Source: Heterodera schachtii
Taxonomy: Eukaryota > Nematoda > Chromadorea > Rhabditida > Heteroderidae
Length of the DNA: 64,000 bases
Direction: 5' to 3'
Assembly (NCBI GenBank): GCA_023374025.1
Contig: SIJG01000006.1
Coordinates: forward strand, 109,596-173,595
Both the position numbers and the translations under genes were made by a program. Of this stretch, positions 3,676 through 63,892 are shown piece after piece. Below the pieces are notes generated by a model. The model worked only from the letters and a program-made list of their open reading frames with translations. It was not told where the DNA came from and did no database searches. Within the stretch, counting starts at the first letter, position 1, and every line of letters starts with the position of its first letter.

Positions 3676-4395
3676 ATGAAATTATGCTTAATATTTTTTT
3701 TAATTTTGTTTTTGATCGTCCTAATTAATATTCATTATGTTGGATCAGAGGATAAAAAATTGCAACAGAAATTTTTTGAGGAAATATTTGGAGAAAAATG
3801 GGAAGAAAAAGAAGAAGAAAAACGAAATGAACTCAAAAAAAGAGAAAAAATTGAAAAATATTATAAAATAAAAGAAAAAATAAAGCAAAAAGGAAAAAAA
3901 TATTCAGCAAAAGAATGGAGTAAAATTGAGGTAAAAATAGCAAAAAATTTTGGAACAAGTCGAAATAATATTCAAAAATGGATTAAACAATTAGGGCTTA
4001 ATCAAAAAATACATAAATGTTACAAATCAAAGACTGACGAAGAAAAAATTGAAATTGTCAAAAAATTTATTGAAATGACAAATGAATTTAAACAAAAAAG
4101 AAAATATTCGAAAAAAGAATGGCACCAAAATTATGCCGAAATTTGTAAGAAAATTGGAATTAGCATTGGAACAATTAATAGATGGAAGAAGCAATTTGAA
4201 ATTAGAAAGAAAAGAATAACGGAGGAAGAAAAAATAGTAAAAATGAAAATTTATTGGAAAATTAAAAAAGAAAATCCGAAAATTAGTGACAATGAAATTG
4301 CAAAAATATTGAAAATTCACCAAAATAGCATTTTAAATTGGAAGAAGCAATTTGGAGAAGAAATGTTTAAGAAAAGAGCAGAAGAAGAAGAGTGA
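3676..4395 (+). CDS. Secreted tandem-HTH protein, three modules
   Basis: Intact intronless 239-aa frame. The start is the ATG at 3676 because all paralogs begin MKLCL there; a possible trans-splice acceptor (TTTTTAG, ending at 3658) lies 17 nt upstream. Residues 1-23 are a hydrophobic signal peptide (cleavage near YVGS-ED). Residues 36-48 are acidic (EEIFGEKWEEKEE). Three HTH-like modules follow, with second-helix ends near 87-108 (GTSRNNIQKWIKQLGL), 154-175 (GISIGTINRWKKQFEI) and 206-227 (LKIHQNSILNWKKQF); each has an upstream Trp (W81, W149, W194). The tail is RAEEEE. The repeats resemble homeodomain-like HTHs of transposases, but there is no DDE domain. A secreted DNA-binding protein is my inference; I do not recognise a named family. 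Its inverted-duplicate partner (42083-42812) is frameshifted. Confidence 0.85.
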   Translation: MKLCLIFFLILFLIVLINIHYVGSEDKKLQQKFFEEIFGEKWEEKEEEKRNELKKREKIEKYYKIKEKIKQKGKKYSAKEWSKIEVKIAKNFGTSRNNIQKWIKQLGLNQKIHKCYKSKTDEEKIEIVKKFIEMTNEFKQKRKYSKKEWHQNYAEICKKIGISIGTINRWKKQFEIRKKRITEEEKIVKMKIYWKIKKENPKISDNEIAKILKIHQNSILNWKKQFGEEMFKKRAEEEE

Positions 4396-4749
4396 TTTAT
4401 TTGTTTGCGATTTTCAATTTAATATATTTTTTTTGTCGCTTTTTTCTTTTTTACTTTGCCAAATTATAAATTTCCTATTTTTCAAAAAAAATTGGAATTA
4501 GTCGTTTAGATATTGAAAACTGGAAGAACCAATTGAAAAATGGATCAACTAATTTGGCATTCACATCTTTGCATTTTCGAATTAAATTTATTCAAAAATC
4601 CACCAGATTTCTAAGTATTTTAAAAAAAATTCTGAAGAATTTGAAATTTTTATCCAAAAATGGTTAAAAGTATTTTTTGTGTTAGATTTCGAGGGCGCTT
4701 TCATAAGCTAAGTCCCGGATTTTTTTTTAAGTGTTGTGCATTTTTGGAA

Positions 4750-4802
4750 GTGAATTGTTTCTCTCATTTTTGCCGCATTTTCTTCCATTTATTTGGGAAA
4801 GG
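4750..4802 (+). pseudogene. GPCR TM6 exon remnant
   Basis: The sequence from GTGAATTGTTTCTC to TGGGAAAGGGTA matches the 3' two thirds of the better preserved exon at 22531-22614 on the other strand (SELFLSFLPHFLPFIWER), and it ends at the same splice-donor position. The 5' part is replaced. A third copy is at 41478-41560 (minus). It may have belonged to the same old receptor gene as the tail exon at 5029, but this is a guess from order and orientation. Confidence 0.35.
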
Positions 4803-5028
4803 GTACGCCGAAATATTTTTTATCAATTATTATTTAAAAAATATCTTTTCAAATATTACATTAATAAAATTAATCATGAGTTATTTTTGTTTTGTATTTA
4901 TAGAAATATTAATAATATAATTACATAAACACAATTATATTCCTTTAGGTTTAAAATTAATTTTCAAAAATTTAACAAAATATAAACCATGCTTGTATTA
5001 TTTTTAATTATTTTCTCATATCTTTTAG

Positions 5029-5337
5029 CTCGATCGAAGCATTGTGTTCTCCTACATATATTCGCACATGTTTTCGGCACGGGATGACACTTCAGTGCAT
5101 GGCACGGGAGGAACATTTAATAATAATGCCACACAACAACAACAACAACAAAATCAACAACAGCCATACCGCATGGAAGAGATGAATTACAGTAAGCAGA
5201 ATGTGGGACGAAGGCGATCGGACCGTGTGGTGCCAATGGCACTAGGACATCCTCAGCCGGCACAAATCCCTGTCCTCGAAGTTACGCCCGTTGAGAATGT
5301 AAACGGCAGGCCTAGAACATCGATGGCACGCTATTGA
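5029..5337 (+). pseudogene. Orphan 3' exon, polyglutamine-containing tail of an unknown protein
   Basis: A TCTTTTAG acceptor at 5028 opens a 103-codon, phase-0 frame running to a TGA at 5335-5337. It begins LDRSIVFSYIYSHMF (possible end of a membrane segment), then SARDDTSVHGTGG, a Gln-rich run (QQQQQQNQQQ), and a basic, Pro-containing tail ending RPRTSMARY. Base composition is clearly richer in GC than the flanks, as expected of old coding DNA. A diverged minus-strand copy of the last ~55 codons lies at 25800-25985. No upstream exons are convincing, so I treat it as an orphan exon. It could be the cytoplasmic tail of a receptor, which I cannot confirm. Confidence 0.45.
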
Positions 5338-5339
5338 GA

Positions 5340-6590: not shown

Positions 6591-6599
6591 TGTTAAATA

Positions 6600-7370: not shown

Positions 7371-8054
7371 TTAATTCTCAAACATTTCTTCTCCAAATTG
7401 TTTCTTCCAATAATAAATATTCGCATTTGAAGTGCTCACAATTTTAGCAATTGCATTATCACTCATTTTTGGATTTTCTCTTTTTATTTGCCAATAAATT
7501 TTCATTTTCTGCATTTTTTCTTCTTCCATTATTCTTTTCTTGCTAATTGCAAATTGTTTCTTCCATTTTTTAATTATTCCATGGCCAACTCCAATTTTCT
7601 TACAAATTTCAGCATAATTTTGTTCCCATTCTTTGCATGAATATTTTCTTTTTTGTTTATATTCATTTTTCATTTCAATAAATTCCTGCATAATTTTAAA
7701 TTTTTCTTCATCAGTATTTGATTTGTGAGATTTGATCCTTTGAAGACCAAATTCTTTGATCCATTTATAAATATTTTTGCGATTTGGCCCCAATTTTTTC
7801 GCTATTTTTTCTTCAATTTTAGTCCGTTCTTTTGTTGAAAATTTTCTTCCTTTTTCCTTTATTTTCTCTTTGATTTTATAAAATTTTGCAATTATTTCTC
7901 TTTTTTTGAGTTCATTTCGTTTTTCTTCTTCTTTTTCTTCCCATTTTTCTCCAAATATTTCATCAAATGATTTCTGTTGCAATTTTTTATCCACTGATCC
8001 AACATAATTAATATTAATTAGGACGATCAAAATTAATATTAGGCATAATTTCAT
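7371..8054 (-). CDS. Secreted tandem-HTH protein, three modules, no acidic tail
   Basis: Intact 227-aa intronless frame from the ATG at 8054; a TTTTAG acceptor lies about 18 nt upstream. Signal peptide is MKLCLILILIVLININYVGS, then the acidic motif, then three modules: GPNRKNIYKWIKEFGL, GVGHGIIKKWKKQFAI and VSTSNANIYYWKKQF. The protein stops at GEEMFEN, so the Glu-rich tail of most paralogs is absent. The first Trp of module 1 is Arg here (STKER instead of SxKEW), a change shared with its inverted-duplicate partner at 34500-35180. The two partners differ mainly in modules 2 and 3. It is convergent with the gene at 3676. Confidence 0.85.
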   Translation of the reverse strand: MKLCLILILIVLININYVGSVDKKLQQKSFDEIFGEKWEEKEEEKRNELKKREIIAKFYKIKEKIKEKGRKFSTKERTKIEEKIAKKLGPNRKNIYKWIKEFGLQRIKSHKSNTDEEKFKIMQEFIEMKNEYKQKRKYSCKEWEQNYAEICKKIGVGHGIIKKWKKQFAISKKRIMEEEKMQKMKIYWQIKRENPKMSDNAIAKIVSTSNANIYYWKKQFGEEMFEN

Positions 8055-9019: not shown

Positions 9020-9226
9020 TCATTTTAAATTTATAAAATTATTAATGAAATTTATAGCCAGACTTTGATTTGGTAGCTTTAGGTTTTCTATGAGACAAAA
9101 AAAATATTTTATTAGAAAATAAACATCATTTTTTGGGAAGTGCTGAATAAAATTAATGATAAAATTAAAGTTTAAAAAAATTGTGTAAAATTTTAAAGTT
9201 TTCATTTTCTCCCAATTTGCGTAAAA
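9020..9226. repeat. Dispersed flank sequence
   Basis: The block containing GACTTTGATTTGGTAGCTTT, GAAAACCTAAAGC complement, and GGGAAGTGCTGAATAAAATT recurs inverted at 33140-33350 and in part at 16040-16165 and 17125-17190. It marks the outer edge of the duplicated 3-9 kb segment. No gene. Confidence 0.6.
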
Positions 9227-12200: not shown

Positions 12201-12548
12201 GAAATTTGGCGTATTTTAGCAAATATAAATGCGGGGCCCTGCTTTTTAATATGAATTAATAAAATTAAAAATTATATAAAAATTATTAAATTTAAAATTT
12301 ACTTTGCTGTAAATGCGCAATTGCTTTGGAGTGTGTCGAACAATCAAGTGAATCCAAATGACATTAAACAGAATGCCAAATCCCATTGTAAACAAACAGA
12401 ATATGTTTTTCGTAAAACGAAAGACAGTTAGGCCCATTCCGAAACTTGGCGTATTTTAGCAAATATAAATGCGGGGCCCTGCTTTTTAATATAAGAATTA
12501 ATAAAATTAAAAAATTATATAAAAATTATTAAATTTAAAATTTACTTT
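9226..12548 (+). repeat. Satellite array, ~241-bp monomer, about 14 units
   Basis: The landmark GGGGCCCTGC recurs near 9352, 9592, 9838, 10070, 10312, 10554, 10792, 11036, 11266, 11508, 11752, 11994, 12235 and 12475 (spacing 230-246). Each monomer includes CCCATTCCGAAATTTGGCGT, an AT-rich stretch, GTAAATGCGCAATTGCTTTG and AATGACATTAAACAGAATGC. Variant monomers recur at a distance of about 1.2 kb (five units), for example the GAAGCGTGTCGG form near 10166 and 11362, which indicates higher-order duplication. The array ends at the gypsy LTR. Confidence 0.95.
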
Positions 12549-13931: not shown

Positions 13932-14374
13932 CTTTTTTAACTCTGGGAAAATAAGAAAAAATTTTATTTTCTAATTTTTTCTAAATGTCAATTTGAATCT
14001 CAAATGCTCTTATTATCTGCCAAGCCAATTATTTTTTTACGGTCCAAGTCAATTAACTTTTAATGATTAAAATTATTTGTAACCAAAAAGTGACGTGGAT
14101 AATCAAAAGGCGTCAGAAATTGCACTTTTATTAATTGGGCTCAGCAGATCCTTTGCCTAGACAATAAATGAGTTGGGCAACAATTACTTACTTTTCATTT
14201 TCAACATTGGTCAAATAAGCCATGGTGATGCATTTAAACTTTAATTTTTTGCAAAACTTGATATAATTCATTTAAGAATTTATTGGCAGATAATAAGAGC
14301 ATTTGAGATTCAAATTGACATTTAGAAAAAAATAGAAAATAAAATTTTTTCTTATTTTCCCAGAGTTAAAAAAG
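13932..14374. mobile_element. 443-bp foldback / MITE-like element with ~92-bp inverted repeats
   Basis: The left arm at 13932-14023 (CTTTTTTAACTCTGGGAAAA to TATTATCTGCCAA) matches the reverse complement of 14283-14374 almost perfectly. The loop is about 260 bp of AT-rich DNA with no frame. AATT flanks both ends and may be a target-site duplication, though 4 bp in AT-rich DNA is weak support. It sits at the junction between the gypsy remnant and the inverted satellite block. Confidence 0.8.
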
Positions 14375-15725: not shown

Positions 15726-15729
15726 TTAA

Positions 15730-17671: not shown

Positions 17672-18235
17672 TCACTCTTCTTTTTCTGCTGTTCTCTGAA
17701 ACATTTCTTCTCCAAATTGTTTCTTCCATTTTTTAATTATTCCATGGCCAACTCCAATTTTCTTACAAATTTCGGCATAATTTTGTTTCCATTCATCATG
17801 TGAATATTTTCTTTTTTGCTTATATTCATTTGTCATTGCAATGAATTTTTGTACAATTGCGAGTTTTTCATCATCAGTTTTTGATTTATGACATTTATGT
17901 ATTTGTTTATTTAATCCTAATTCTTTAATCCATCCATAAACATTTTTGCGATTTGTCCCCAATTTTTTCGCTATTTTTCTTTCAATTTTCCCCCATTCTT
18001 TTTTTGGATATTTCCTCCCTTTTTCCTTTATTTTCTCTTTTATTTTATAAAATTTTTCAATTATTTCTCTTTTTTTGAATTCATTTCTTTTTTCTTCTTC
18101 TTTTTCTTCCCATTTTTCTCCAAATATTTCTTCAAATGATTTCTGTTGCAAATTTTTCTTTTTTGGTTCAACATAATTAATATTAATTATGTTGATCAAA
18201 AATAAAATTAAAGAAAATATTAGGCATAATTTCAT
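17672..18235 (-). CDS. Secreted tandem-HTH protein, two modules
   Basis: Intact 187-aa frame. Signal peptide is MKLCLIFSLILFLINIININ, then EPKKKNLQQKSFEEIFGEKW and the basic KIKEKIKEKGRKYPKKEW helix. Module 1 is GTNRKNVYGWIKELGL and module 2 is GVGHGIIKKWKKQFG. The sequence then joins directly to EEMFQRTAEKEE, so module 3 is absent. It reads as a clean deletion between the homologous KKQFG sites of modules 2 and 3, which would keep the frame. The 20465-21028 copy shares this architecture. The upstream block is at 18411-18501, with a chemoreceptor fragment pointing the other way beyond it. Confidence 0.85.
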   Translation of the reverse strand: MKLCLIFSLILFLINIININYVEPKKKNLQQKSFEEIFGEKWEEKEEEKRNEFKKREIIEKFYKIKEKIKEKGRKYPKKEWGKIERKIAKKLGTNRKNVYGWIKELGLNKQIHKCHKSKTDDEKLAIVQKFIAMTNEYKQKRKYSHDEWKQNYAEICKKIGVGHGIIKKWKKQFGEEMFQRTAEKEE

Positions 18236-20464: not shown

Positions 20465-21028
20465 TCACTCTTCTTTTTCTGCTGTTCTCTGAAACATTTC
20501 TTCTCCAAATTGTTTCTTCCATTTTCTAATTACTGTTTGACTAACTCCAATTTTCTTACAAATTTCGGCATAATTTTGTTTCCATTCTTTATTTGAATAT
20601 TTTCTTTTTTGCTTATATTCATTTGTCATTGCAATGAATTTTTGTACAATTGCGAGTTTTTCTTCATCAGTTTTTGATTTATGACATTTATGTATTTGTT
20701 TATTTAATCCTAATTCTTTGATCCATCCATAAACATTTTTGCGATTTGTCCCCAATTTTTTCGCTATTTTTCTTTCAATTTTCCCCCATTCTTTTTTTGG
20801 ATATTTCCTCCCTTTTTCCTTTATTTTCTCTTTTATTTTATAAAATTTTTCAATTATTTCTCTTTTTTTGAATTCATTTCTTTTTTCTTCTTCTTTTTCT
20901 TCCCATTTTTCTCCAAATATTTCTTCAAATGATTTCTGTTGCAAATTTTTCTTTTTTGGTTCAACATAATTAATATTAATTATGTTGATCAAAAATAAAA
21001 TTAAAGAAAATATTAGGCATAATTTCAT
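20465..21028 (-). CDS. Secreted tandem-HTH protein, two modules, paralog of 17672
   Basis: Intact 187-aa frame nearly identical to the gene at 17672-18235 over signal peptide, acidic motif and module 1. Apart from one TDDEK/TDEEK change, the differences cluster in module 2: SNKEW replaces SHDEW, and the recognition helix reads GVSQTVIRKWKKQFG instead of GVGHGIIKKWKKQFG. Flanking DNA is also nearly identical, so duplication is recent and the clustered change stands out. The upstream block and a chemoreceptor fragment follow on the right, as in the first copy. Confidence 0.87.
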   Translation of the reverse strand: MKLCLIFSLILFLINIININYVEPKKKNLQQKSFEEIFGEKWEEKEEEKRNEFKKREIIEKFYKIKEKIKEKGRKYPKKEWGKIERKIAKKLGTNRKNVYGWIKELGLNKQIHKCHKSKTDEEKLAIVQKFIAMTNEYKQKRKYSNKEWKQNYAEICKKIGVSQTVIRKWKKQFGEEMFQRTAEKEE

Positions 21029-23154: not shown

Positions 23155-23870
23155 TCACTCTTCTTCTTCTTCTTCTGCTCTTTTCATAAACATTTCTTCT
23201 TCAAATTGTTTCTTCCAATTAAGAATATTCTGATTTGAAGTGTTTACAATTTTGGCAATTGCATTATCACTCATTTTCGCATTTTCTTTTTTAATTTCCC
23301 AATAAATTTTCATTTTTTCTATTTTTTCTTCCTCCGTTAATCTTTTCTTTCTAATTCCAAATTGCTTCTTCCATCTATTAATTGTTGCATGACTAACTCC
23401 AATTTTCTTACAAATTTCGGCATAATTTTGGTGCCATTCCTTTAATGAATATTTTCTTCCTTTTTGTCTGTATTCATTTGTCATTTCAATAAATTTTTGA
23501 CAATTTCAATTTTTTCTTCGTCAGTCTTTGATTTGTAGCATTTATTTTGATTAATACCAAATTGTTTAATCCATTTATAAATTTTGTCTCGATTTGTTCC
23601 CAATTTTTTTGCTATTTTCGTACTTATTTTACTCCATTCTTTTGTTGAGTATTTTCTTCCTTTTTGCTTTATTTTCTCTTTTATTTTATAAAATTTTGCA
23701 ATTATTTCTCTTTTTTCTTCCAATTTTTCTTCTTCTTTTTCTTCCCATTTTTCTCCAAATATTTCATCAAATGATTTCTGTTGCAATTTTTTCTTTTCTG
23801 ATCCAACATAATTAATTTTTATTAAGACGATCAAAAACAAAATTAAAGAAAATATTAAGCATAATTTCAT
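23155..23870 (-). pseudogene. Frameshifted secreted tandem-HTH gene, three modules
   Basis: Opens with an intact signal peptide at 23870 and reads through GEKWEEKEEEK and module 1 (GTNRDKIYKWIKQFGI). It loses frame near 23497, where paralogs have TTTTTGCACAATTTC and this copy has TTTTTGACAATTTC (one base lost). The second part (23155-23484) is open and carries module 2 (GVSHATINRWKKQFGI), module 3 (VNTSNQNILNWKKQFEEEMF) and a long Glu tail. A single indel is the only damage, so an assembly error or a very recent mutation is possible. Confidence 0.8.
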
Positions 23871-27605: not shown

Positions 27606-28322
27606 CTATTCTTCTTCTTCTTCTTCTGCTATTCTCTGAAACATTTCTTCTCCAAATTGTTTCTTCCATTTTGAAATGCTATTTTGATGAATTTTCAATG
27701 TCTTTCCAATTTCCTTATCACTCATTTTTGGATTTTCTCCTTTTATTTCCCAATATTTTTTCATTTTTTCCACTTTTTCTTTCTCCGTTATTCTTCTAGT
27801 GTAAATCCCAAATTTTCTCTTCCATTTTTCAATTACTGAACGGCTAACTCCAATTTTCTTGCAAATTTCTTTATAATTTTGTTGCCATTCATTTTTAGAA
27901 TATTTTCTGTTTTGTTTGTATTCATTTGTCATTTTAATGAATTTTTGCACAATTTCAAATTTTTCTTCATCAGTTTTCGATTTATGACTTTTATATTTTT
28001 GTTTATTCAATCCCAATTCTTTAATCCATTCAAAAATATATGTGCGATTTGTCCCCAATTTTTTTGCAATTTTTCTGTCAGTTTTATGCCATTCTTTTGA
28101 TGAATATTCTCTTGCTTTTTCCTTTATTTTCTCTTTTATTTTGTAAAATTTTCTAATGATTTCTCTTTTTTTTCCCAAATTTTCTTCTTTTTCTTCCCAT
28201 TTTTCTCCAAATATTTCATCAAATGATTTCTGTTGCAAACTTTTCTTTTTTGGTTCAACATAATTAATTTTTATTAAGACAATCAAAAATAAAATTAAAG
28301 AAAGTATTTGAAATAATTTCAT
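27606..28322 (-). CDS. Secreted tandem-HTH protein, three modules
   Basis: Intact 238-aa frame from the ATG at 28322. Signal peptide MKLFQILSLILFLIVLIKIN, then EPKKKSLQQKSFDEIFGEKW and EEKEENLGKK. The modules read GTNRTYIFEWIKELGL, GVSRSVIEKWKRKFGI and LKIHQNSISKWKKQF, and the tail is RIAEEEEEE. The third module is introduced by MSDKEIGKT rather than MSDNEIAK. It is the direct-duplicate counterpart of the broken copy at 46283-46983, from which it differs in modules 2 and 3. Confidence 0.86.
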   Translation of the reverse strand: MKLFQILSLILFLIVLIKINYVEPKKKSLQQKSFDEIFGEKWEEKEENLGKKREIIRKFYKIKEKIKEKAREYSSKEWHKTDRKIAKKLGTNRTYIFEWIKELGLNKQKYKSHKSKTDEEKFEIVQKFIKMTNEYKQNRKYSKNEWQQNYKEICKKIGVSRSVIEKWKRKFGIYTRRITEKEKVEKMKKYWEIKGENPKMSDKEIGKTLKIHQNSISKWKKQFGEEMFQRIAEEEEEE

Positions 28323-31149: not shown

Positions 31150-31866
31150 TCACTCTTCTTTTTCTGCTGTTCTCTGAAACATTTCTTCTCCAAATTGTTT
31201 CTTCCATTTGAAGATGCTCTTTAGATGAATTTTCAATACTTTTGCAATTTCCTTATCACTCATTTTTGGTTTTTCTTTTTTTATTTGCCAATAAATTTTA
31301 ATTTTTTCCATTTTTTCTTTCTTCATTATTCTTTTACTGCTTAATCCATATTGTTTCTTCCATTTAAAAATTGTTACAAGTCCAACTCCAATTTTCTTAC
31401 AAATTTCGGCATAATTTTGTTGCCATTCTTTTTTTGAATATTTTCCTTTTTGCTTATAATCATTTGTCATTGCATTAAATTTTTCTACTATTTCAATTTT
31501 TTCTTCATTGGTTTTTGATTTATGACTTTTATATTTTTGTTTATTCAATCCCAATTCTTTAATGCATTCAAAAATATATGTGCGATTTGTCCCCAATTTT
31601 TTCGCTATTTTTGTTTCAATTTTCCCTCATTCTTTTTTTGGATATTTCCTCCCTTTTTCCTTTATTTTCTCTTTTATTTTATAAAATTTTTCAATTATTT
31701 CTCTTTTTTTGAATTCATTTCTTTTTTCTTCTTTTTCTTCCCATTTTTCTCCAAATATTTCTTCAAATGATTTCTCTTGCAAATTTTTCTTTTTTGGTTC
31801 AACATAATTAATATTAATTATGTTGATCAAAAATAAAATTAAAGAAAATATTAGGCATAATTTCAT
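31150..31866 (-). pseudogene. HTH gene with one nonsense codon, three modules
   Basis: The frame starts at 31866 (MKLCLIFSLILFLINIININ) and runs to KYPKKE, where the conserved Trp codon TGG has become TGA at 31627-31629. The frame is otherwise continuous to 31150. Downstream of the stop are GTNRTYIFECIKELGL (Trp to Cys in module 1), GVGLVTIFKWKKQYGL and LKIHLKSIFKWKKQF, then RTAEKEE. It differs from the two-module genes at 17672 and 20465 by retaining module 3. Confidence 0.85.
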
Positions 31867-34233: not shown

Positions 34234-34328
34234 TCTACTCTTCTGATGACCAAAATTGCAATAAAAGTAGGGCAAAACAAATATGTTTTTTGATCAGTAG
34301 GATAAAAATGTTTATTTAATCGTGGAAT
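34234..34328 (+). promoter_or_regulatory. Conserved upstream inverted-repeat block, HTH gene at 34500
   Basis: TACTCTTCTGATGACC (degraded distal arm), AGTAGGGCAAAAC, TTTTTTGATCAGTAGGATAA, AATGTTTATTTAATCGTGGA. The proximal arm TGATCAGTAG is intact. It ends about 170 bp before the ATG. Confidence 0.6.
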
Positions 34329-34499: not shown

Positions 34500-35180
34500 A
34501 TGAAATTATGCCTAATTTTAATTTTGATCGTCCTAAGTAATATTAATTATGTTGGGTCAGTGGATAAAAAATTGCAACAGAAAACATTTGATGAAATATT
34601 TGGAGAAAAATGGGAAAAAAAAGAAGAAAATTTGGAAGAACAGAAAAGAAGAGAAATAATTCAAAAATATTATAAAATCAAAGAGAAAATAAAGCAAAAA
34701 GGAAGAAAATTTTCAACAAAAGAACGGACTAAAATTGAAGAAAAAATAGCGAAAAAATTGGGGACAAATCGCAAAAATATTTATAAATGGATCAAAGAAT
34801 TTGGTCTTCAAAAACTCAAATCTCACAAATCAAAAACTGATGAAGAAAAATTAAAAATTGTGCAGGAATTTATTGAAATGAAAAATGAATATAAACAAAA
34901 AAGAAAATTTTCAACAAAAGAATGGGATCAAAATTATGCCGAAATATGCAAGAAAATCGGAGTGAAATATGCGACAATTATGAGATGGAAAAAACAATTT
35001 GACATTAGCTGTAAAAGAATAACTGAGAAAGAAATAATAGAAAAAATGAAAATTTATTGGCAAATAAAAAGAGAAAACCCAAAAATGAGTGATAATGAAA
35101 TTGGAAAAATTGTGAACACTTCAAATCAGAATATTTATAATTGGAAGAAAAAATTTGGAGAAGAAATGTTTGAGAATTAA
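34500..35180 (+). CDS. Secreted tandem-HTH protein, three modules, no acidic tail
   Basis: Intact 226-aa frame, with a TTTTAG acceptor (34480-34481) 18 nt before the ATG. Signal peptide MKLCLILILIVLSNINYVGS, then KWEKKEENLEEQKRRE. Modules: GTNRKNIYKWIKEFGL, GVKYATIMRWKKQFDI, VNTSNQNIYNWKKKF; it ends GEEMFEN. It shares STKERTK in place of SxKEW with its inverted-duplicate partner at 7371-8054. Module 2 is KYATIMR here and GHGIIKK there. Shared noncoding flanks continue into the foldback minisatellite at 35630. Confidence 0.86.
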   Translation: MKLCLILILIVLSNINYVGSVDKKLQQKTFDEIFGEKWEKKEENLEEQKRREIIQKYYKIKEKIKQKGRKFSTKERTKIEEKIAKKLGTNRKNIYKWIKEFGLQKLKSHKSKTDEEKLKIVQEFIEMKNEYKQKRKFSTKEWDQNYAEICKKIGVKYATIMRWKKQFDISCKRITEKEIIEKMKIYWQIKRENPKMSDNEIGKIVNTSNQNIYNWKKKFGEEMFEN

Positions 35181-36855: not shown

Positions 36856-36882
36856 TCTCCCCTTTTAAGATCAGAACCCCGA

Positions 36883-42082: not shown

Positions 42083-42812
42083 TCACTCTTCTTCTTCTTC
42101 TTCTGCTCTTTTCTTAAACATTTCTTCTTCAAATTGTTTCTTCCAATTAAAAATGCTTTTGCTATGAATTTTCAATATTTTTGCAATTTCATTATCATTC
42201 ATTTTTGAGATTTTCGCTTTTTATTTGACAATAAATTTTCATTTTTACTATTTTTTCTTCCTCCGTTATTCTTTTACGACTAATTCCAAATTGTTTCTTC
42301 CAATTTTCAATTGTTCTATGTTTAACTCTAATTTTCTTACAAATTTCTTCATTAATTTGCTCGCCTTCTTTTTTCGAATACTTTCTTTCTTTTTGTTTAT
42401 ATTCATTTTTCATTTCAATAAATTTTTGTACAATTTCAATTTTTTCTTCATTTGTTTTTAATTTATGACATTTATATATTTTTTGATTAAGCCCCAATTC
42501 TTTAATCCATTCAAAAATATATGTGCGATTTGTTCCCAATTTTCTTCCAATTTTTCTTTCAATTTTATTCCATTGTTTATTTGAATATTTTCTTCCTTTT
42601 TGCTTTATTTTCTCTTTTATTTTGTTGAATTTTTCAATTATTACTCTTTTTTTCAGTTCATTTCGTTTTTCTTCTTCCTTTTCTTCCCATTTTTCTCCAA
42701 ATATTTCATCAAATGATTTCTGTTTCAATTTTTTATCCTCTGATCCAACATAATGAATATTAATTAGGACGATCAAAAATAAAATTAAAGAAAATATTAG
42801 GCATACTTTCAT
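42083..42812 (-). pseudogene. Frameshifted secreted tandem-HTH gene, three modules
   Basis: The frame from 42812 (MKVCLIFSLILFLIVLINIH) passes through the acidic motif, module 1 (GTNRTYIFEWIKELGL) and module 2 (GVKHRTIENWKKQFGI). It is then shifted by one extra base near 42210 (AAAATCTCAAAAATG where others have AAAATCCAAAAATG), so the open frame ends at 42195. The old frame continues past it with module 3 (LKIHSKSIFNWKKQF) and a long Glu tail to about 42083. It is the inverted-duplicate partner of the intact gene at 3676, from which it differs in all three recognition helices. Confidence 0.83.
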
Positions 42813-45609: not shown

Positions 45610-46280
45610 GAACGTAAAAAATATTGTCATTTGCTTATTTTTCTTTAAAAATCCCTTAAAATCCCAAAAAATTTTCAAGGGTCTCCAAAATTCGACTAAA
45701 ATTTTTAAAATTTGACGCAAATGTTTACATTAGTAATTTTATCAAGCTTTATCATTGAAAAATATTAAAATGCATTTGTTTTTATTTTATTTATATTTTA
45801 ATTGTTGAAACTACAAAAGTTGGAACAACAGAGAAAAAGCAGAAACAAAAATCATTTAATGAATAGATAAATAAAATGCCTTTATGAAATCAAATTAGCC
45901 CTGTTAAATAAAGCAATTAAATTCAAAAATTTATCAAAAAATTGCTAGATAATACGCATGTTTTGACTCAGTAACTTTAATCGGAAAAATCCATGTATGT
46001 GAATGCCAAATTGGTTGTTCCATTTTTCAATAACTGAACGGCTAACTATAATTTTCTTACCTCGGTATTTGAGGAAATTCAAAAATTCCAATAATTTTGA
46101 GAATTTGGTACGAAAAACCCTCCAAAATTGTGGCAGTCTCTAATTCGCATGTTACTCGATATGTCTTTTTTATACCGTAATGAAATTTTTGAAAAATAAG
46201 GAAATTAATTTAGCATATTTAAAGGAAAATGCACCAAAAATAATATATATTAAATTGGAATAGGTCTAACAAATCACTCT
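45610..46280. other. Noncoding, with an HTH-gene scrap
   Basis: 45770-45870 (plus) contains a subfamily-2 scrap with TTEKKQKQKSFNE before a stop. 46030-46180 is the shared 3' flank (CCTCCAAAATTGTGGCAGTC). Nothing else seen. Confidence 0.5.
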
Positions 46281-46282
46281 TC

Positions 46283-46983
46283 TTCTTCTTTTTCTGCAAT
46301 TCTCTAAAACATTTCTTCTACAAATTGTTTTTTCCATCTTAGAATAGTATTTTTATGAATTTTCAATATTTTTGCAATTTCCTTATCACTCATTTTTGGA
46401 TTTTCTCCTTTTATTTCCCAATATTTTTTCATTTTTTCCACTTTTTCTTTCTCCGTTATTCTTTTCTTGCTAATTCCAAATTGTTTCTTCCATTTATCAA
46501 TTGTTCTATAAGTGACTCCAATTTTCTTACCAATTTCGGCATAATTTTGTTTCCATTCTTTTTTTGAATATTTTCCTTTTTGTTTGTATTCATTTGACAT
46601 TGCAATAAATTTTTGTACTATTTCAATTTTTTCTTCATCAGTTTTTGATTTATGACTTTTATATTTTGTTTATTCAATCCCAATTCTTTAATCCATTCAA
46701 AAATATATGTGCGATTTGTCCCCAATTTTTTTGCAATTTTTCTGTCAATTTTTCCCCATTCTTTTCTTGGATATTTTCTTCCTTTTTCCTTTATTTTCTC
46801 TTTTATTTTATAATATTTTTCAATTATTTCTCTTTTTTCTTCCAATTTTTCTTCTTCTTTTTCTTCCCATTTTTCTCCAAATATTTCATCAAATGATTTC
46901 TGTTGCAATTTTTTATTCACTGATCCAACGTGATTAACGACGATCCAAAAAACATTTAAAGAGAATAATAGGCATAATTTCAT
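46283..46983 (-). pseudogene. Frameshifted HTH gene in the left arm of the large inverted repeat
   Basis: From 46983 the frame reads MKLCLLFSLNVFWIVVNHVG, the acidic motif and module 1 (GTNRTYIFEWIKELGL). It loses one base near 46664 (TTTATATTTTGTTTATTC versus TTTATATTTTTGTTTATTC). Modules 2 (GVTYRTIDKWKKQFGI) and 3 (LKIHKNTILRWKKQF) are open in the next frame. The C-terminal CAG codon is TAG, so the frame ends VEEMF* before RIAEKEEE. The right-arm partner at 63203 shares this stop but has no frameshift. Confidence 0.85.
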
Positions 46984-48660: not shown

Positions 48661-48739
48661 AAAGAAAATATTCAAGAAATAAATTGCAACAAAATAATTC
48701 CGAAATTGGTAGGAAAATTGGAGTTGGCAATATTATTAG

Positions 48740-51075: not shown

Positions 51076-51787
51076 ATGAAACTCCGCCTATTATTCATTT
51101 TAATTCTATTTTTGATCATCGAAATTCACCAAATTAAAATGGAAACGAAAAAATTACAACAAAAATCATTTGATGAAATATTTGGAGAAAAATGGGAAGA
51201 AAAAGAAGAAGAAAAATTGGAAGAAAAAAGAGAAATAATTGTAAAATATTATAAAATCAAAGAAAAAATCAAAGCAAAAAGGAAGAAAATACTCAACAAA
51301 AGAATGGAGTAAAATTGAATTAAAAATAGCGAAAAAATTGGGGACAAATCGAATGAAAATTTATGAATGGATTAAAGAATTAGGCCTTTATCAAAAATTA
51401 CAAAAAAGCTACAAATCAAAAAGTGATGAAGAAAAGTTAGAAATTGTTCAAAAATTCATTAAAATGTCAAATGAATATAAGCAAAAAGGAAAATATTCTT
51501 TAAAAGAATGGGAGAAAAATTATGGTCAAATTTGTAATAAAATTGGAGTTAGCCATACCGTAATTAAGACATGGAAGAAACAATTTGGAATTAGCAAAAA
51601 AAGAATAACTGAGAAAGTAAAAATGGAAAAAATGAAAATATATTGGGAAATTAAAAAAGAAAATCCGATAATAAATGATAATGAAATTGCAAAAATATTG
51701 AAAATTCATAGCAGAAGCATTTTAAATTGGAAGAAGCAATTTGGAGAAGAAATGTTTAAGAAAAGAACAGAAGAAGAAGAAGAGTGA
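51076..51787 (+). pseudogene. Frameshifted HTH gene, left-arm copy, three modules
   Basis: The start is the ATG at 51076 (MKLRLLFILILFLIIEIHQI; METKKLQQKSFDEIF). One extra A near 51271 (ATCAAAGCAAAAAGG versus ATCAAGCAAAAAGG in the right-arm copy) ends the frame at 51312. The rest is open from 51338 and has GTNRMKIYEWIKELGL, GVSHTVIKTWKKQFGI, LKIHSRSILNWKKQF and RTEEEEE. Its upstream DNA is unlike the main class and lacks the inverted-repeat block. Confidence 0.8.
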
Positions 51788-55347: not shown

Positions 55348-55349
55348 GG

Positions 55350-58335: not shown

Positions 58336-58445
58336 ATTATGAGAATGAATAAAATAAGGGGAACACAAAAATCAAATAAGGAAGACAACAAAACGCCACA
58401 ATTTCTAAATTTAATAATCCGTCTTCACTCCTCATTTATTTCTTC

Positions 58446-59112
58446 TCCAATTTTTTCTTCCATTTTGAAATGGTCGATTGATCAATTTTCAGTAATTTTG
58501 CAATTCGGTGTCACTCATTTTTTGATTTTCTTTTTTTATTTGCCAATAAATTTTCATTTTGTCCATTTTTTCTTCCTTCATTATTCTTTTTTTGCTAATG
58601 CCAAATTGTTTCTTCCATTTCATAATTGTTCCATAACCAACTCCAATTTTATTACAAATTTGACCATAATTTTTCTCCCATTCTTTTAAAGAATATTTTC
58701 CTTTTTGCTTATATTCATTTGACATTTTAATGAATTTTTGAACAATTTCTAACTTTTCTTCGTCAGTTGTTAATTTATAGCTTTTAGGTTTTTGTTTGTA
58801 AAGGCCCAATTCTTTAATCCATTTATAAATTTTCGTTCGATTTGTGCCCAATTTTTTCGCTATTTTTAATTCAATTTTATTCCATTCTTTTCTTGGATAT
58901 TTTCTTCCTTTTTGCTTGATTTTTTCTTTGATTTTATAATATTTTACAATTATTTCTCTTTTTTCTTCCAATTTTTCTTCTTCTTTTTCTTCCCATTTTT
59001 CTCCAAATATTTCATCAAATGATTTTTGTTGTAATTTTTTCGTTTCCATTTTAATTTGGTGAATTTCGATGATCAAAAATAGAATTAAAATGAATAATAG
59101 GCGGAGTTTCAT
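58446..59112 (-). pseudogene. HTH gene, right-arm copy, frameshifted only at module 3
   Basis: From the ATG at 59112 the frame is open through the signal peptide, acidic motif, module 1 (GTNRTKIYKWIKELGL) and module 2 (GVGYGTIMKWKKQFGI). It shifts near 58505 (GACACCGAATTGC, one A fewer than the GAAATTGC of relatives) and ends at 58489 as SDTELQNY. The old frame continues LKIDQSTISKWKKKLEK to about 58446. A two-module secreted protein of about 207 aa could still be made. Its left-arm partner is broken at a different place. Confidence 0.78.
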
Positions 59113-59504
59113 TTTTATTACAATGATATTTTGTCTAAAAATATTATTGATATTTTGATGGACTTCATACAAATTTGAAACAGAATATAAATAATATGTT
59201 ATTAGTTCGTAAAATTATATTCAAATAATATTTTGAAAAAATAATGATATAATTTATATTCATATTATTATCTCAATATTTTATGATTAATGAGATAATC
59301 ATCATTTTAAAATGATTATATTTGAATGAAATTTTTAACTTTATTTGCATCATAATTATTGATTTTTGTTTCATTTTTTTTATTATGACAAAAAATGAGT
59401 TTTATTTATAAAAGATGAAGAAATTAAAAATATTGCCGTTTAAATCATAATATTACAACAATATTGATTAAAGAAAAAAATATAATTTAAAATGTAATGA
59501 ATTT

Positions 59505-59814
59505 TTGTACGATTTCAATTTTTTCTTCATCACTTTTTGATGTGTAACTTTTGTGTATTTGTTTATTAAGCCCAAATTGTTTAATCCATTTTTGAATATA
59601 TTTGCGATTTGTTCCCAATTTTTTCGCTATTTTCGAATTAATTTTATTCCATTCTTTTTTCTTTCAAATCTTCTTCTTCTTTTTCTTCCCATTTTTCTCC
59701 AAATATTTCATCAAATGATTTTTGTTCCAATTTTTTCTTTTTTGGTTCAACATAATTAATATTAATTATGTTGATCAAAAATAAAATTAAAAATAAGAAA
59801 ATAAATGATTTCAT
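59505..59814 (-). pseudogene. Broken subfamily-2 HTH gene, right-arm copy
   Basis: Mirror of 50388-50705. ATG at 59814 (MKSFIFLFLILFLINIININ), EPKKKKLEQKSFDEIFGEKW and EEKEEEDLKERME, then a stop. Module 1 follows out of frame (GTNRKYIQKWIKQFGL). Its signal-peptide and EPKKK stretch is of the main class rather than subfamily 2, unlike the left-arm copy, which suggests gene conversion from a neighbour. Confidence 0.7.
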
Positions 59815-60699
59815 TTAAATTTGACAATAAATAAATGTAAAAATTATTACAATTTGATGACAGAAATTATGATATTTTTTGCTTTTCTATTTAATAAATG
59901 AAGAAAAATGATTTTATTGCTTTGGATTAATTATAAAAAGTCAAAAGAAATAAAAAAAATCAGTACAATTACCAATGAATATTTCATTGAAAAGAAGAAA
60001 TATTTTGCATTAATTTACAACAAAAAAATGCATATAAAATTAATATACACTGGATAAATGTGAGTACATGGATTTAAAAATCAAAAATAAGAATTGAACT
60101 TTTTGCATATAAATTTGTTAATTTTTTTTAGAAAATTTCTTCCAGTAATTTCTATGAACCTTAAAAAAATTCATTTTCACACATTTTTTTATATTTTAAT
60201 TTTTCCTTCATTGGTATGCCTAAAAATATTACATCTAATTGAATGTTAAAACAGTTTTCCCACATCAATTATTAAAATAATCCATCAAAAATAGGCTATT
60301 TCATACGTAAGAAAATTTTGTTTTTTCAAGAAAAAAAATTTGAATTTACGAAACTTGGCATCTCGAATAAAGCTAAAGAATTTTGCCCAACCAGTGAATG
60401 GCATTTTATGTGTGTGGCAAAATGTAAATTGGACATCTATCCATTTATTAAACTCAAATTCATTTAATTTATAATAAAAATTAAATAAAATTGGATATAT
60501 TCATTTATTTGGAAGTGATTTTTAGTAATTAATTTGATTTCTGTGAAGTAAAATATAAATTTTCCAAAATTTATTTTCCATAAAGGAGAGAATTTTGAAA
60601 TAGTTTTCTATTTCTTTTCTGTTTCGGGCTTTAGATTGGCCAAAAAAAATAGTTATTTGATTTTCAAAAATGAAAATTCCTCGATAATTGTAGGACGAT

Positions 60700-61470
60700 T
60701 TGGGCCGGCGACGGCACTTTCAAAAGTGATTTTATACCAGGGATGACGACGATTTTCGATGATTTTTGCAAGAATTCGAATTTCGATTTAATTTTTCCAA
60801 ATCAAAATCGGCGTCAGCCTTTTTTTGCATAATAAATCATCCCTAAGTTTTTAGTGCGACCATCGAATTTATTACAGTTATATACCCTAAACATTATTGT
60901 CCAACACTCAAGAATACCATGCGCCTGTATAATAACGGCAAATCGGATGCAGCAAACATACCGTCGATTATTCTCTGGTATACGTGATAGAGTTGAAGGC
61001 GTAATACCAAGCAGTTTTATTCTGGATTTTGAACCTGGTTGTACTGATGTTTAATCGATTTTATTTTTAATATTTGATCATTTAGCTGCAAGATCGGCAT
61101 TTCTTGAAGTTTGGCCGAGCTCAGTGATGAGACACTGTCTTTTTCACCTATCACAATCAGTAAATCGAAGAGTGCAGAGGGAAGGACTGGCACCACAATT
61201 CTTAGTGGATATCGGTTTTAGAAAATCTGTGCGATCATTGTCGGCGATTTAGTTTCTTCCTTTAATTTATGTGGAAGAGGGTTATCAAATTCTCAGAAAT
61301 AATGCACCTATACAAACGCTTCCAATCTTTGATTACTTTGCATCGTAGATTATGTTTTTAAATTGTTGTGGCGTTTTTTTTTATAGTACATATCTCTTCC
61401 GTCGACGACCTGATTTATTTGTGCCAGAAACATGGAATATGCATGATTCTGTCCTTGATAATTTAGCACG
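60700..61470 (+). pseudogene. MULE-type transposase fragment, copy 3
   Basis: Mirror copy of 48740-49520. 60854-61054 reads LYTLNIIVQHSRIPCACIIT, then RMQQTYRRLFSGIRDRVEGV and FILDFEPG. VEEGYQILRNNAPIQTLPIF is at 61270-61345. RRPDLFVPETWNMHDSVLDN, LARTNN is at 61400-61475. Relative to the left-arm copy, about 18 bp are missing before RRPDLF. Stops occur in between. Confidence 0.68.
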
Positions 61471-61489
61471 CACTAATAATATTGCCAAC

Positions 61490-62230
61490 TCCAATTTTCC
61501 TACCAATTTCGGCATTATTTTGTTGCAATTTATTTCTTGAATATTTTCTTTTCAGTTTATATTACTTGAAACATTAATGAATTTTTTGAATGTAATTACT
61601 GTTTGTCCCTAATTTTTTGATATTTTCAAATCAATTTTTCCCATTCTTTTGTTGAATATTTTCTTCCTTTTTGCTTAATTTTCTCATTTATTTTATAATA
61701 TTTTCTGATTATTTCTGTTCTTTTCTGTTCTTCCAATGTTTGTTCTTCTTTTTCTTCCCATTTCAATTGGCAATAAATATATATATTTTTTAATTAATAC
61801 AATTTGATGATGGAAATATTAAAATTTGCAATATTATTTAATAAATGAATAATGTGTGAATTTTCTGTAGATTTCATTAAAGAAGAAGAGTGATTTATTT
61901 GTTTGTGATTTTCAATTTAAAATATTATTTTTGGTACTTTTTTCTTTAATAATTATGCTAAATTAGAAATTTATTAAATTATTAGAACTTTGAATTTCTT
62001 CAAATGCCGAATTAGTAAGAAAATTGGAGTGAGTCGTACCAATTGAAAAATGGATGAATCAATTTGGCATTCACATATATGCATTTTGCAATTAAATTCA
62101 TTCAAAAATATACCAAATTTCAGGTATTTTTCTTCCCATTTTTCTCTACCAATTTTTTCTTTTCTGTTCCGATTTGATTAATTTGGTTGACCAAAAATAC
62201 AATTAAAAATAATAATTGGGATAATTTCAT
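61490..62230 (-). pseudogene. Scraps of subfamily-2 HTH genes, right arm
   Basis: 61560-61770 mirrors 48450-48660 (KQKGRKYSTKEW with stops). 62110-62230 mirrors 47956-48120: ATG at 62230, MKLSQLLFLIVFLVNQINQI, then EKKKLV and a short deletion removing the FDEIF motif. The DNA between is shared intergenic sequence. Confidence 0.6.
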
Positions 62231-62938
62231 TTTCAATTGACCATAATTCTGTTAATTAATTTAATTTGGTGACGGAAATTGTGAAATTATTTGCTATATT
62301 ATTTAATAAATGAATAAATGTGAGAATTTTCTGTAGATTTCATTAATCAATGGAATTTTATGTCTTCATAAATTACCGTATTATTTTGTTGCGATTGCTT
62401 GGCATATAAATTAGCGAAAACTAATTTTTCATTTTGCCAAATTTGGCATCTCGAATAAAGCTAAAGAATTTTACGCAATCAGTGAATGGCATTTTATGTT
62501 TGTGGGATAATTTAATTTCGTTTATATAAAGGGAGGCAATTGAAAAATTGGCATTTACTCATTTAGAAAATTTAATTACTTTAATTTGTAATTAAAAAAA
62601 ATTAAATAAAATTGGATAATAATATTCATTTCTTTGGAAGTGATTTTTTGTAATTAATTGATTTCTATGAAAGTAAAACATAAATTTTCCAAAATTTATT
62701 TTGCCAAACGGAGACAATTTTGAAATAGTTTTCTATTTCTTTTCGGTTTCGGGCTTTAGATTGGCCAAAAAAGATATTTATTTATTTTTAAAAATGAAAA
62801 TTGATAATGGAGGATATAATTTAAGTTATTCATTTCATTACAATCAAATTAATTAATTATTAAAAATTTTCTTCTATTACTTCGCGATTTTACAACGGCA
62901 CATTTAAAAAAATAAGTATAATTTTAATAATTATATAC

Positions 62939-63030
62939 CTACTCTACTGATCATAAAATTGTAATAACAGTAGGGAATAAAAAAATTTTTTGATCAGTAG
63001 GGATAAAAATGTTTATTTAATCGTAGAAAT
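62939..63030 (+). promoter_or_regulatory. Conserved upstream inverted-repeat block, HTH gene at 63203
   Basis: CTACTGATCA at 62944-62953 and TGATCAGTAG at 62991-63000, followed by GGATAAAAATGTTTATTTAA and TCGTAGAAAT. Both arms are intact. It ends about 175 bp before the ATG. Confidence 0.62.
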
Positions 63031-63202
63031 AATTTTATTTTTTAATTTGCATCTTATAAAAATATTCATTAAATATTAATGAGAAAATATATTAATTATA
63101 TATGTATTTGCCATGAATAATATGTTGTCTAATTAAAATAATAAATTCACTTTTTAATGTTTTAATATTTAATTTGTTTTTAGGAATATCTCTTTTTTTA
63201 AA

Positions 63203-63892
63203 ATGAAATTATGCCTATTATTTTCTTTAATTTTATTTTTGATCGTCTTAATAAAAATTAATTATGTTGAACCAAAAAAGAAAAAGGCACAACAGAAATC
63301 ATTTGATGAAATATTTGGAGAAAAATGGGAAGAAAAAGAAGAAGAAAAATTGGAAGAAAAAAGAGAAATAATTGAAAAATATTATAAAATAAAAGAGAAA
63401 ATAAAGGAAAAAGGAAGAAAATATTCAAGAAAAGAATGGAATAAAATTGACATAAAAATTGCAAAAAAATTGGGGACAAATCGCACATATATTTTTGAAT
63501 GGATTAAAGAAATGGGTTTGAATAAACAAAAATATAAAAGTCATAAATCAAAAACTGATGAAGAAAAAATTGAAATAGTACAAAAATTTATTGAAATGAC
63601 AAAAGAATATAAGCAAAAAAGAAACTATTCAAAAAAAGAATGGAAAGAAAATTATGCCGAAATTTACAAGAAAATCGGAGTCACTTATAGAACAATTGAT
63701 AAATGGAAGAAACAATTTGGAATTAGCAAAAAAATGTTAACGCAGGAAGAAAAAATAGTAAAAATGAAAATTTATTGGGAAATAAAAGGAGAAAATTCAA
63801 AAATGAGTGATAAGGAAATTGGAAAAATATTGAAAATTCATCAAAATACTATTCTAAGATGGAAAAAACAATTTGTGAAAGAAATGTTTTAG
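63203..63892 (+). CDS. Secreted tandem-HTH protein, three modules
   Basis: Intact 229-aa frame, with a TTTTTAG acceptor (ending at 63183) 19 nt upstream of the ATG. Signal peptide MKLCLLFSLILFLIVLIKIN, then EPKKKKAQQKSFDEIFGEKW and EEKEEEKLEEKRE. Modules: GTNRTYIFEWIKEMGL, GVTYRTIDKWKKQFGI, LKIHQNTILRWKKQF. It ends VKEMF because a TAG replaces the CAG of relatives; the old tail (RIAEKEEE) is still readable after the stop. The same stop in the left-arm copy shows it arose before the inverted duplication. Confidence 0.86.
   Translation: MKLCLLFSLILFLIVLIKINYVEPKKKKAQQKSFDEIFGEKWEEKEEEKLEEKREIIEKYYKIKEKIKEKGRKYSRKEWNKIDIKIAKKLGTNRTYIFEWIKEMGLNKQKYKSHKSKTDEEKIEIVQKFIEMTKEYKQKRNYSKKEWKENYAEIYKKIGVTYRTIDKWKKQFGISKKMLTQEEKIVKMKIYWEIKGENSKMSDKEIGKILKIHQNTILRWKKQFVKEMF

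What the first reader, a model, noticed from the sequence alone, without database searches (positions are those of the whole stretch)
3676..63892. Secreted multi-HTH family with hypervariable recognition helices
At least 11 well-preserved copies share an almost invariant framework (signal peptide, FDEIFGEKWEEKEEE, KIKEKIK, KEWxxNYAEICKKIGV, WKKQFG, MKIYW, EEMF). The residues between GV and W in module 2 vary strongly: SIGTINR, GHGIIKK, SQTVIRK, SHATINR, SRSVIEK, GLVTIFK, KYATIMR, KHRTIEN, TYRTIDK, SHTVIKT, GYGTIMK. Modules 1 (NNIQK, KNIYK, KNVYG, TYIFE, DKIYK, MKIYE) and 3 (HQNSILN, SNANIYY, SNQNIYN, HLKSIFK, HKNTILR) vary at the equivalent sites. In HTH folds these sites lie in the DNA-reading helix. 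This suggests a combinatorial, secreted DNA-recognition system, perhaps acting in host nuclei.
Basis: partly seen in the sequence, partly recalled or inferred. Interest (0 to 1): 0.93.

Follow-up and report, generated by a model that had tools for sequence, protein, structure and literature searches.

The report
Nematode repertoire of variable DNA-reading proteins
The genome of a plant-parasitic cyst nematode, probably the beet cyst nematode, holds about 1,200 copies or fragments of one gene family whose proteins are predicted to be secreted and to fold into up to three DNA-binding units, and the residues that would touch DNA vary far more than the framework around them, which suggests a reshuffled repertoire likely made to recognise many DNA sequences, possibly in the host plant.

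Summary
The window has 7 intact members, 6 long interrupted ones and shorter fragments. The genome has 590 exact and 1,240 near matches to one family signature (44 control hits). Pfam and an AlphaFold model (mean pLDDT 81.5) give up to three HTH units behind a hydrophobic N-terminus. On average, variation is highest at HTH positions 12, 13, 16 and 17 in each of three modules and in two Globodera modules; a helix-2 face also varies. Omega is 0.80-0.99 at reading codons, 0.21-0.27 in the HTH core, and above 1 in two site sets picked after seeing the variation (1.63, 1.40). The 95 complete proteins hold 89 distinct triples of reading strings. Linkage along the gene is almost nil, and long shared tracts indicate gene conversion. 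One tandem pair differs mainly in a single reading helix. So the HTH fold, variable reading positions and combinatorial make-up are supported. Secretion and DNA binding are predictions. Host-nuclear action is untested: nuclear signals are not enriched, and a published male-biased giant family could be the same one. Many Globodera relatives are filed as 'Transposase', but no catalytic domain was found.

The parts
34500..35180 (+). intact member, 226 aa, three HTH modules; the modelled protein
   Evidence: ORF; HTH_28 E 5e-14; models
34500..34559 (+). hydrophobic N-terminus, predicted signal peptide (residues 1-20)
   Evidence: Kyte-Doolittle 12-aa mean >=2.0 within first 30 residues in 104 of 108 family ORFs
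34587..34607 (+). FDEIFGE motif, shared with Globodera homologues
34770..34799 (+). module 1 recognition helix (residues 91-100)
   Evidence: model; entropy
34968..34997 (+). module 2 recognition helix (residues 157-166), highest omega of the three
   Evidence: model; omega
35124..35153 (+). module 3 recognition helix (residues 209-218)
   Evidence: model; entropy
34301..34327 (+). conserved upstream element (GATAAAAATGTTTATTTAATCGTNGAA type)
   Evidence: G000:C6:143896-143922; the 11 hits inside the window all lie about 80-200 bp upstream of the start of a family copy (arithmetic)
3676..4395 (+). intact member, 239 aa, three modules
7371..8054 (-). intact member, 227 aa; its module-2 reading segment matches that of 17672-18235 over 61 nt exactly
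17672..18235 (-). intact two-module member, 187 aa (module 3 lost)
20465..21028 (-). intact two-module tandem sister of 17672-18235; 9 codons differ, 5 of them in module-2 HTH positions 11-14 and 16
17732..17749 (-). module-2 reading codons 163-168 of the 17672 copy
20525..20542 (-). module-2 reading codons 163-168 of the 20465 copy
27606..28322 (-). intact member, 238 aa, three modules
63203..63892 (+). intact member, 229 aa, three modules; query of the genome search
23158..23870 (-). near-full-length copy, interrupted
31153..31866 (-). near-full-length copy, interrupted
42086..42812 (-). near-full-length copy, interrupted
46277..46983 (-). near-full-length copy, interrupted
51076..51784 (+). 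near-full-length copy, interrupted; different upstream region
58441..59112 (-). near-full-length copy, interrupted; different upstream region

Best explanation
These genes encode likely secreted proteins predicted to bind DNA through up to three tandem helix-turn-helix units, and the family keeps its framework fixed while diversifying selection and short-tract gene conversion appear to reshuffle the residues that would read DNA, so that the genome holds a large repertoire of predicted DNA specificities, most likely used against host-plant DNA. Shown by the calls: family size, HTH sequence signal, placement of the variable sites, unequal replacement rates, near-absence of linkage along the gene, tract sharing, a homologous family in Globodera. 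Predicted: signal peptide and fold. Inferred: DNA binding, additive reading by the modules, entry into host cells and nuclei, and a transcriptional effect there. A mature charge of about +27 and conserved lysines at the end of each reading helix would grip the backbone; the reading residues would set the sequence.
For: HTH_28 E 5e-14 to 1.5e-6 in 8 of 8 window proteins scanned, all above the curated cut-off; 38 of 42 aligned members match HTH_23 and 35 of 42 HTH_28. AlphaFold with 42 sequences: mean pLDDT 81.5, helices placed as three units, reading helices at residues 91-100, 157-166, 209-218. Mean entropy at HTH positions 12, 13, 16, 17 against the other 17 positions: 1.76/0.65, 2.53/0.60, 2.72/1.15 in the three modules and 2.45/0.89, 1.92/0.68 in two Globodera modules; 0.0005 to 0.018 of random four-position sets score as high (the four positions were fixed after the profiles were seen). 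Omega scaled by the fourfold-site spectrum, 44 independent pairs: reading codons 0.99 (0.88-1.12), HTH core 0.27 (0.21-0.33), rest 0.53 (0.49-0.57); chosen after seeing the variation: positions 12/13/16 of module 2 1.63 (1.22-2.19), helix-2 face 1.40 (1.17-1.65). 89 distinct reading triples in 95 proteins; r2 falls from 0.079 (<=3 nt) to 0.016, shuffled 0.011. The longest tract shared by pairs under 85% identity exceeds all 100 column permutations. Tandem pair 17672/20465: 9 of 188 codons differ, 1 synonymous, 5 in the module-2 reading helix. Median net charge +27; hydrophobic N-terminus in 104 of 108 ORFs and 31 of 39 Globodera homologues. Precedent: HsvG/HsvB, type III effectors with five HTH motifs that act as transcriptional activators (PMC12886408, section 6 read).
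Against: No binding, localisation or expression data here. NLS-like motifs: 78 of 98 bipartite against 80.7 in shuffled sequences, 63 of 98 monopartite against 96.2. The recalled DOG-box hexamer is not enriched upstream: 13 occurrences against 16.1 expected in 98 upstream regions. NG86 omega at reading codons is 0.80 (0.69-0.93), below 1; in the 7 closest pairs 0.56. The two site sets with omega above 1 were picked after seeing the variation, which biases them upward. Synonymous differences are also raised at reading codons (P 0.02). Module 1 reads less variably (its helix-2 position 2 is its most variable site, and position 11 is nearly fixed), and position 16 is conserved in the Globodera penultimate module (0.52). 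Foldseek gives no PDB match at E <= 0.001 for either model, and pTM is low (0.33, 0.39). The family may be the published male-biased one, which would speak against a feeding-site effector.
Confidence: 0.45

Rival explanations
1. The proteins bind DNA but act inside the nematode, in males: either as germ-line factors against mobile DNA (as KRAB zinc-finger proteins do in mammals, recalled) or as secreted seminal or gut proteins. Diversification would follow the worm's own genome or mating conflict, not the host.
For: H. schachtii has 3,094 genes similar to ADI82807.1, making up 860 of the 2,881 genes of its male-specific cluster, with 2,235 of 3,094 in segmental duplications; G. pallida has 474 relatives of the same H. 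avenae gene, some expressed only in males, some seen in the digestive system by in situ, none of those tested in gland (passages of PMC9582021 and PMC4054857). The copy numbers found here (1,240 signature sites; 3,656 first-look candidates) are compatible.
Against: ADI82807.1 is not held here, so identity with this family is untested. A conserved hydrophobic N-terminus in two genera argues against a nuclear germ-line factor.
Confidence: 0.27
2. The HTH fold is a scaffold for binding host proteins; the variable helix escapes recognition by, or follows, a plant protein, and DNA is not the ligand.
For: A second hypervariable face in helix 2 (positions -6, -2, 2; omega 1.40) lies beyond the classic reading helix.
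Against: The conserved lysines, the +27 charge and the rise of variation at HTH reading positions in five module sets suit DNA better.
Confidence: 0.15
3. The variation is relaxed constraint in a decaying repeat family; exposed sites drift and no function is selected.
For: Many interrupted copies: 32 of the 150 listed matches carry in-frame stops. Reading-codon omega is 0.80 to 0.99 overall.
Against: The core and framework are under purifying selection (omega 0.27 and 0.53), positions 19-21 at the end of the reading helices are conserved (0.48, 0.31-0.73), and two site sets exceed 1, though picked after the fact. The pattern recurs in Globodera.
Confidence: 0.1
4. It is a transposase family or its remains, as the database names of many Globodera homologues say.
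For: 18 of 39 homologues are named Transposase; HTH_Tnp_1 and IS630/IS3/IS481 models match the HTH parts.
Against: No catalytic domain found: the only DDE hit is 8.7 bits against a cut-off of 24.8. The IS models score below their cut-offs. The whole protein is N-terminus plus HTH units.
Confidence: 0.03

Closest known systems
HsvG / HsvB of Pantoea agglomerans
   Same: secreted effectors with several HTH motifs forming a putative DNA-binding domain (PMC12886408, section 6 read)
   Different: two bacterial proteins with two NLSs, not a nematode family of about 1,200 copies or fragments with variable reading helices; no sequence comparison made
TAL effectors of Xanthomonas and Ralstonia
   Same: modular secreted DNA readers whose specificity residues vary on a fixed framework (what it would work like; recalled)
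   Different: TAL repeats are about 34 aa with a two-residue code (recalled); here the units are HTH modules with several variable sites each
GLAND4 of cyst nematodes
   Same: cyst-nematode effector secreted into the plant nucleus that suppresses host genes (PMC12886408); called a DNA-binding protein in the title of Barnes 2018 (reference list seen)
   Different: sequence not held, so homology untested; the paper itself is not held
[quoted passage not shown]
   Same: giant cyst-nematode family: 3,094 genes in H. schachtii, mostly in segmental duplications, and 474 in G. pallida (passages)
   Different: no HTH or reading-site variation mentioned in the passages seen; [quoted passage not shown]
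Hgg-20 of Heterodera glycines
   Same: effector with 144 relatives in tandem duplications (PMC6367775, passage)
   Different: sequence not held; relation unknown
HYP effectors of Globodera pallida
   Same: large modular, hypervariable secreted family (PMC4177990, abstract and outline)
   Different: apoplastic, from amphid-associated cells; the abstract mentions no DNA-binding fold
Globodera rostochiensis proteins filed as 'Transposase'
   Same: homologous by profile, E down to 8e-32: hydrophobic N-terminus, FDEIFGE, HTH units variable at similar positions
   Different: often a longer repeat region before the HTH units, and two recognised modules in 28 of 39; the name rests on the HTH alone

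Membership tests
HTH_28/HTH_23 helix-turn-helix domains | profile score above the curated cut-off | tested here: met
   HTH_28 above its 25-bit cut-off in 8 of 8 window proteins
HTH_28/HTH_23 helix-turn-helix domains | tri-helical fold with helix 3 as reading helix | tested here: met
   predicted helices in three units, block means of pLDDT about 75-97 within the units; a prediction, with no PDB match at E <= 0.001
Transposase (IS630/IS3/mariner type) | catalytic DDE domain | tested here: not met
   no DDE match above cut-off in 8 window proteins; no DDE family among the 25 of 27 families shown for 42 members
TAL effectors | tandem repeats of about 34 aa with a repeat-variable diresidue (recalled) | tested here: not met
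   units are HTH modules, W to W spacing 66 and 52 residues; Pfam scan to E 10 listed no TAL repeat
HsvG-like effectors | multiple HTH motifs in a secreted protein | tested here: inconclusive
   HTH modules met (three in 94 of 108 ORFs); secretion only predicted; no sequence comparison
HsvG-like effectors | nuclear localisation signals | tested here: inconclusive
   motifs present but not above shuffled composition
ADI82807.1 dorsal-gland-like family | sequence similarity to ADI82807.1 | not testable with these tools
   sequence not held; copy numbers are compatible
GLAND4 | homology to GLAND4 | not testable with these tools
   sequence and paper not held
Cyst-nematode effector | gland-cell expression plus signal peptide | tested here: inconclusive
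   hydrophobic N-terminus in 104 of 108; expression not available

The most novel reading that the evidence does not exclude
Cyst nematodes carry an animal-encoded, secreted, combinatorial DNA-recognition system: about 1,200 gene copies (intact and broken) of a three-reader protein whose reading helices are exchanged between copies by gene conversion and driven apart by selection, so that each worm deploys a repertoire of host-DNA-targeting proteins, working like TAL effectors but built from helix-turn-helix units.
Probability: 0.33. Interest if true: 0.96.

Novelty: new variant of a known kind. Interest (0 to 1): 0.82.

Why it matters
The transcription-factor-like effectors named in the review read here (PMC12886408, section 6) are mostly single bacterial or fungal proteins. 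A nematode family of this size, with a fixed framework and hypervariable DNA-reading positions, would be a natural library linking recognition-helix sequence to target. It would explain what one very large gene family of a major crop pest is for, and it would make host reprogramming at feeding sites testable at the DNA level. If the family proves to be male-expressed instead, it would point to an unknown DNA-directed conflict inside the worm. The database label 'Transposase' may have hidden the Globodera members from effector surveys (inference).

Tried and rejected
Mobile element: window self-comparison shows homology units ending about 95 bp after the stop and about 600 bp before the ATG in several copies. 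A flank comparison of 30 loci (97 and 94 of 435 pairs with a collinear hit) is not reliable: the script took every locus as plus-oriented, but its own printout shows that only 12 of 30 begin with ATG at the expected place, so upstream and downstream flanks were mixed. I read flanks of 13 window copies by eye and saw no clear terminal repeats; not settled.

Nuclear localisation signals: not above shuffled sequences. DOG box (hexamer recalled, from no call): not enriched. N-glycosylation sequons: no excess.

Searches for a published description: listings; word finds in PMC11817004, PMC2640417, PMC12886408, PMC11309470, PMC6367775, PMC2662880, PMC9582021, PMC4054857, PMC4011697, PMC5478601, PMC6555003; section 7 of PMC11309470. 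None of what I saw describes a secreted multi-HTH family with variable reading helices. PMC4927581 and PMC3661543, listed with one mention of helix-turn-helix each, were not opened; subscription papers and preprints are not held. Scaffold 23 of the published assembly, rich in male genes, could not be matched to a contig here: the 31 places include none on C23, but scaffold numbering may differ.

Dropped rows: 12 of 108 ORFs (fewer than 205 of 226 aligned codons) before the selection tests; one more with a gap in the triple count (95 of 96); P0016, P0019, P0023 and P0028 left out of A4, so 35 of 39 homologues were used with 7 window proteins. 120 of the 150 listed matches got no locus from that call; 69 regions were fetched afterwards. 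The sample favours copies close to one query. I did not test pseudogene copies as a neutral control.


Full report
What is there. The window lies at C6:109596-173595 of an assembly of 178,491,932 bases in 356 contigs. It is AT-rich (27.7% GC from the base counts). SPRY domains match at all 150 places scored, as expected of a cyst nematode. H. schachtii v1.2 is reported as about 179 Mb in 395 scaffolds, with 90% of the sequence on 154 scaffolds longer than 281,463 bp (PMC9582021, passages); contig C154 here is 289,789 bp long. I take the species to be very likely Heterodera schachtii; no call names it.

The family. Seven intact genes, six long interrupted ones and shorter stretches lie in the window. 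Genome-wide, a 24-nt pattern coding FGEKWEEK has 590 exact sites (0 in the reversed control) and 1,240 sites with up to 3 mismatches (44 in the control). The protein search scored 150 of 3,656 candidates; 118 of the 150 listed have no in-frame stop. A Globodera homologue used as query also finds a second group of longer open frames (up to 386 aa) on other islands, such as C5:438-706 kb and C6:2.09-2.34 Mb.

Anatomy. The seven intact window genes are single open frames of 187-239 aa. A hydrophobic N-terminus (104 of 108 family ORFs) is followed by a stretch like KKLQQKSFDEIFGEKWEEK, a long charged helix, and HTH modules: by a simple pattern, three in 94 of 108 ORFs, two in 10, one in 4. HTH_28 reaches E 5e-14. 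Two AlphaFold models of the same protein agree on the helices of three units (mean pLDDT 74.8 and 81.5); the relative placement of units is uncertain (pTM 0.33, 0.39). The mature part is very basic (median net charge +27, 24% lysine).

Where variation sits. I set G154 of module 2 as position 9 of the classic HTH; the numbering and the list of DNA-contacting positions (11, 12, 13, 16, 17) are recalled knowledge of HTH structures. In modules 1 and 2 the core positions 4, 8, 9, 10, 15 and 18 are conserved; in module 3 positions 8-10 vary moderately (0.9-1.5 bits). Mean entropy at positions 12, 13, 16 and 17 exceeds that elsewhere in all five module sets: three in this genome and the last two modules of 38 and 33 Globodera homologues. 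I fixed those four positions after seeing the profiles. Single sites differ: in module 1 position 2 is the most variable and position 11 nearly fixed; in the Globodera penultimate module position 16 is conserved. Positions 19-21, at the end of the reading helix, are conserved (omega 0.48).

Selection. Among 96 full-length members of 108 ORFs, Nei-Gojobori omega over 44 independent pairs is 0.80 (0.69-0.93) at the 18 reading codons (positions 11-14, 16, 17), 0.39 in the remainder and 0.21 in the core; module 2 alone is 1.38. Scaled by the substitution spectrum of fourfold sites, the values are 0.99, 0.53 and 0.27, and 1.25 (0.99-1.68) for module 2; two sets picked after seeing the variation give 1.63 (1.22-2.19; positions 12, 13, 16 of module 2) and 1.40 (1.17-1.65; helix-2 face). 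Nine of the 18 reading codons are among the 25 most replaced sites (P 2e-5). Synonymous change is also higher at reading codons (mean pS 0.46 against 0.33, P 0.02), so some of the excess may come from clustered events such as conversion. In the seven closest pairs the reading-codon omega is 0.56.

Reshuffling. Distinct reading strings: 58 of 96, 81 of 96 and 74 of 95 in modules 1-3; 89 distinct triples among 95 proteins, six triples occurring twice. Pairwise distances of four gene segments are nearly uncorrelated (r -0.03 to 0.18), and r2 between sites falls to 0.016 against 0.011 when shuffled. Among 4,492 pairs under 85% identity the longest shared run is 67 polymorphic columns; no permutation of 100 reached that, and 50 pairs have runs of at least 41 columns against 0.27 expected. 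The tandem pair 17672/20465 is 97.3% identical over 1,381 bp, yet 5 of its 9 codon differences lie in module-2 positions 11-14 and 16, and two more in helix 2 of that module. The two versions match the 7371 copy over 61 nt and a copy on another contig (L073) over 62 nt exactly; much of each match is conserved framework. Exact reading cassettes are shared by divergent pairs more than permutation gives: 29 against 5.0, 3 against 0.5, 2 against 0.0; for module 2, 4 of 200 permutations reached the observed number.

Regulation. An upstream element is found 71 times in the genome with up to 2 mismatches and 0 times in the control. Its 11 places in the window lie about 80-200 bp before the start of 11 of the 13 long copies. 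A splice-acceptor-like TTTTAG or similar stands within 60 nt of the ATG in 42 of 98 (8 in simulated sequences), suggesting trans-splicing or a 5' UTR intron.

What it most likely does. The sequence pattern is that of a fixed scaffold with a diversified DNA-reading surface, in proteins predicted to leave the cell. The simplest joint reading is a repertoire of secreted DNA-binding proteins. In a plant parasite with known nuclear effectors the host nucleus is the most plausible address, but that step is inference. The chief rival is a role in males: the literature describes a giant cyst-nematode family of compatible scale that is male-biased. Whether it is this family could not be tested.

Known or new. 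In what I saw of the held papers (calls listed under Tried and rejected) there is no description of the HTH modules or their variable reading sites. Members have probably been counted in annotations, and 18 of 39 Globodera homologues carry the automatic name Transposase. I rate it a new variant of a known kind (transcription-factor-like effectors), with a bolder reading kept open.

Noticed in passing
window 9225-12548 and 14384-15729: Tandem array with a period of about 240 bp, several units coding a membrane-protein-like fragment (MGLNDFRFTKNIFCLFTMGFGILFNVIW...), with an inverted copy nearby.
   Followed up: no
window 36883-40943: Retrotransposon-like open frames with zinc-knuckle-like and integrase-like parts (by eye); 36535-37790 and 39727-40979 are 97.8% identical. 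Observed only.
   Followed up: no
window 13027-13974: Reverse-transcriptase-like open frame of 315 aa (by eye).
   Followed up: no
window 46196-51753 and 58438-64000: Inverted segmental duplication of 5.6 kb, 94.9% identical, carrying several family copies.
   Followed up: no
G000 C5:438-706 kb, C6:2.09-2.34 Mb, C36:54-77 kb, C40 about 1.0 Mb: Second, longer subfamily closer to the Globodera type, most listed matches without in-frame stops, on separate islands.
   Followed up: partly
window about 200-260 bp upstream of many members: Inverted repeat CTACTGATCA ... TGATCAGTAG before the conserved GATAAAAATGTTTATTTAATCG element; could be a regulatory site or even a target of such proteins.
   Followed up: partly
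window 17672-18235 and 20465-21028: Two-module members in which module 2's WKKQF runs straight into the GEEMF tail, as if the repeated WKKQFG motif had recombined.
   Followed up: partly
window 51076-51784 and 58441-59112: Copies with a different upstream region and a METKKLQQK stretch after the N-terminus, perhaps another subfamily.
   Followed up: no
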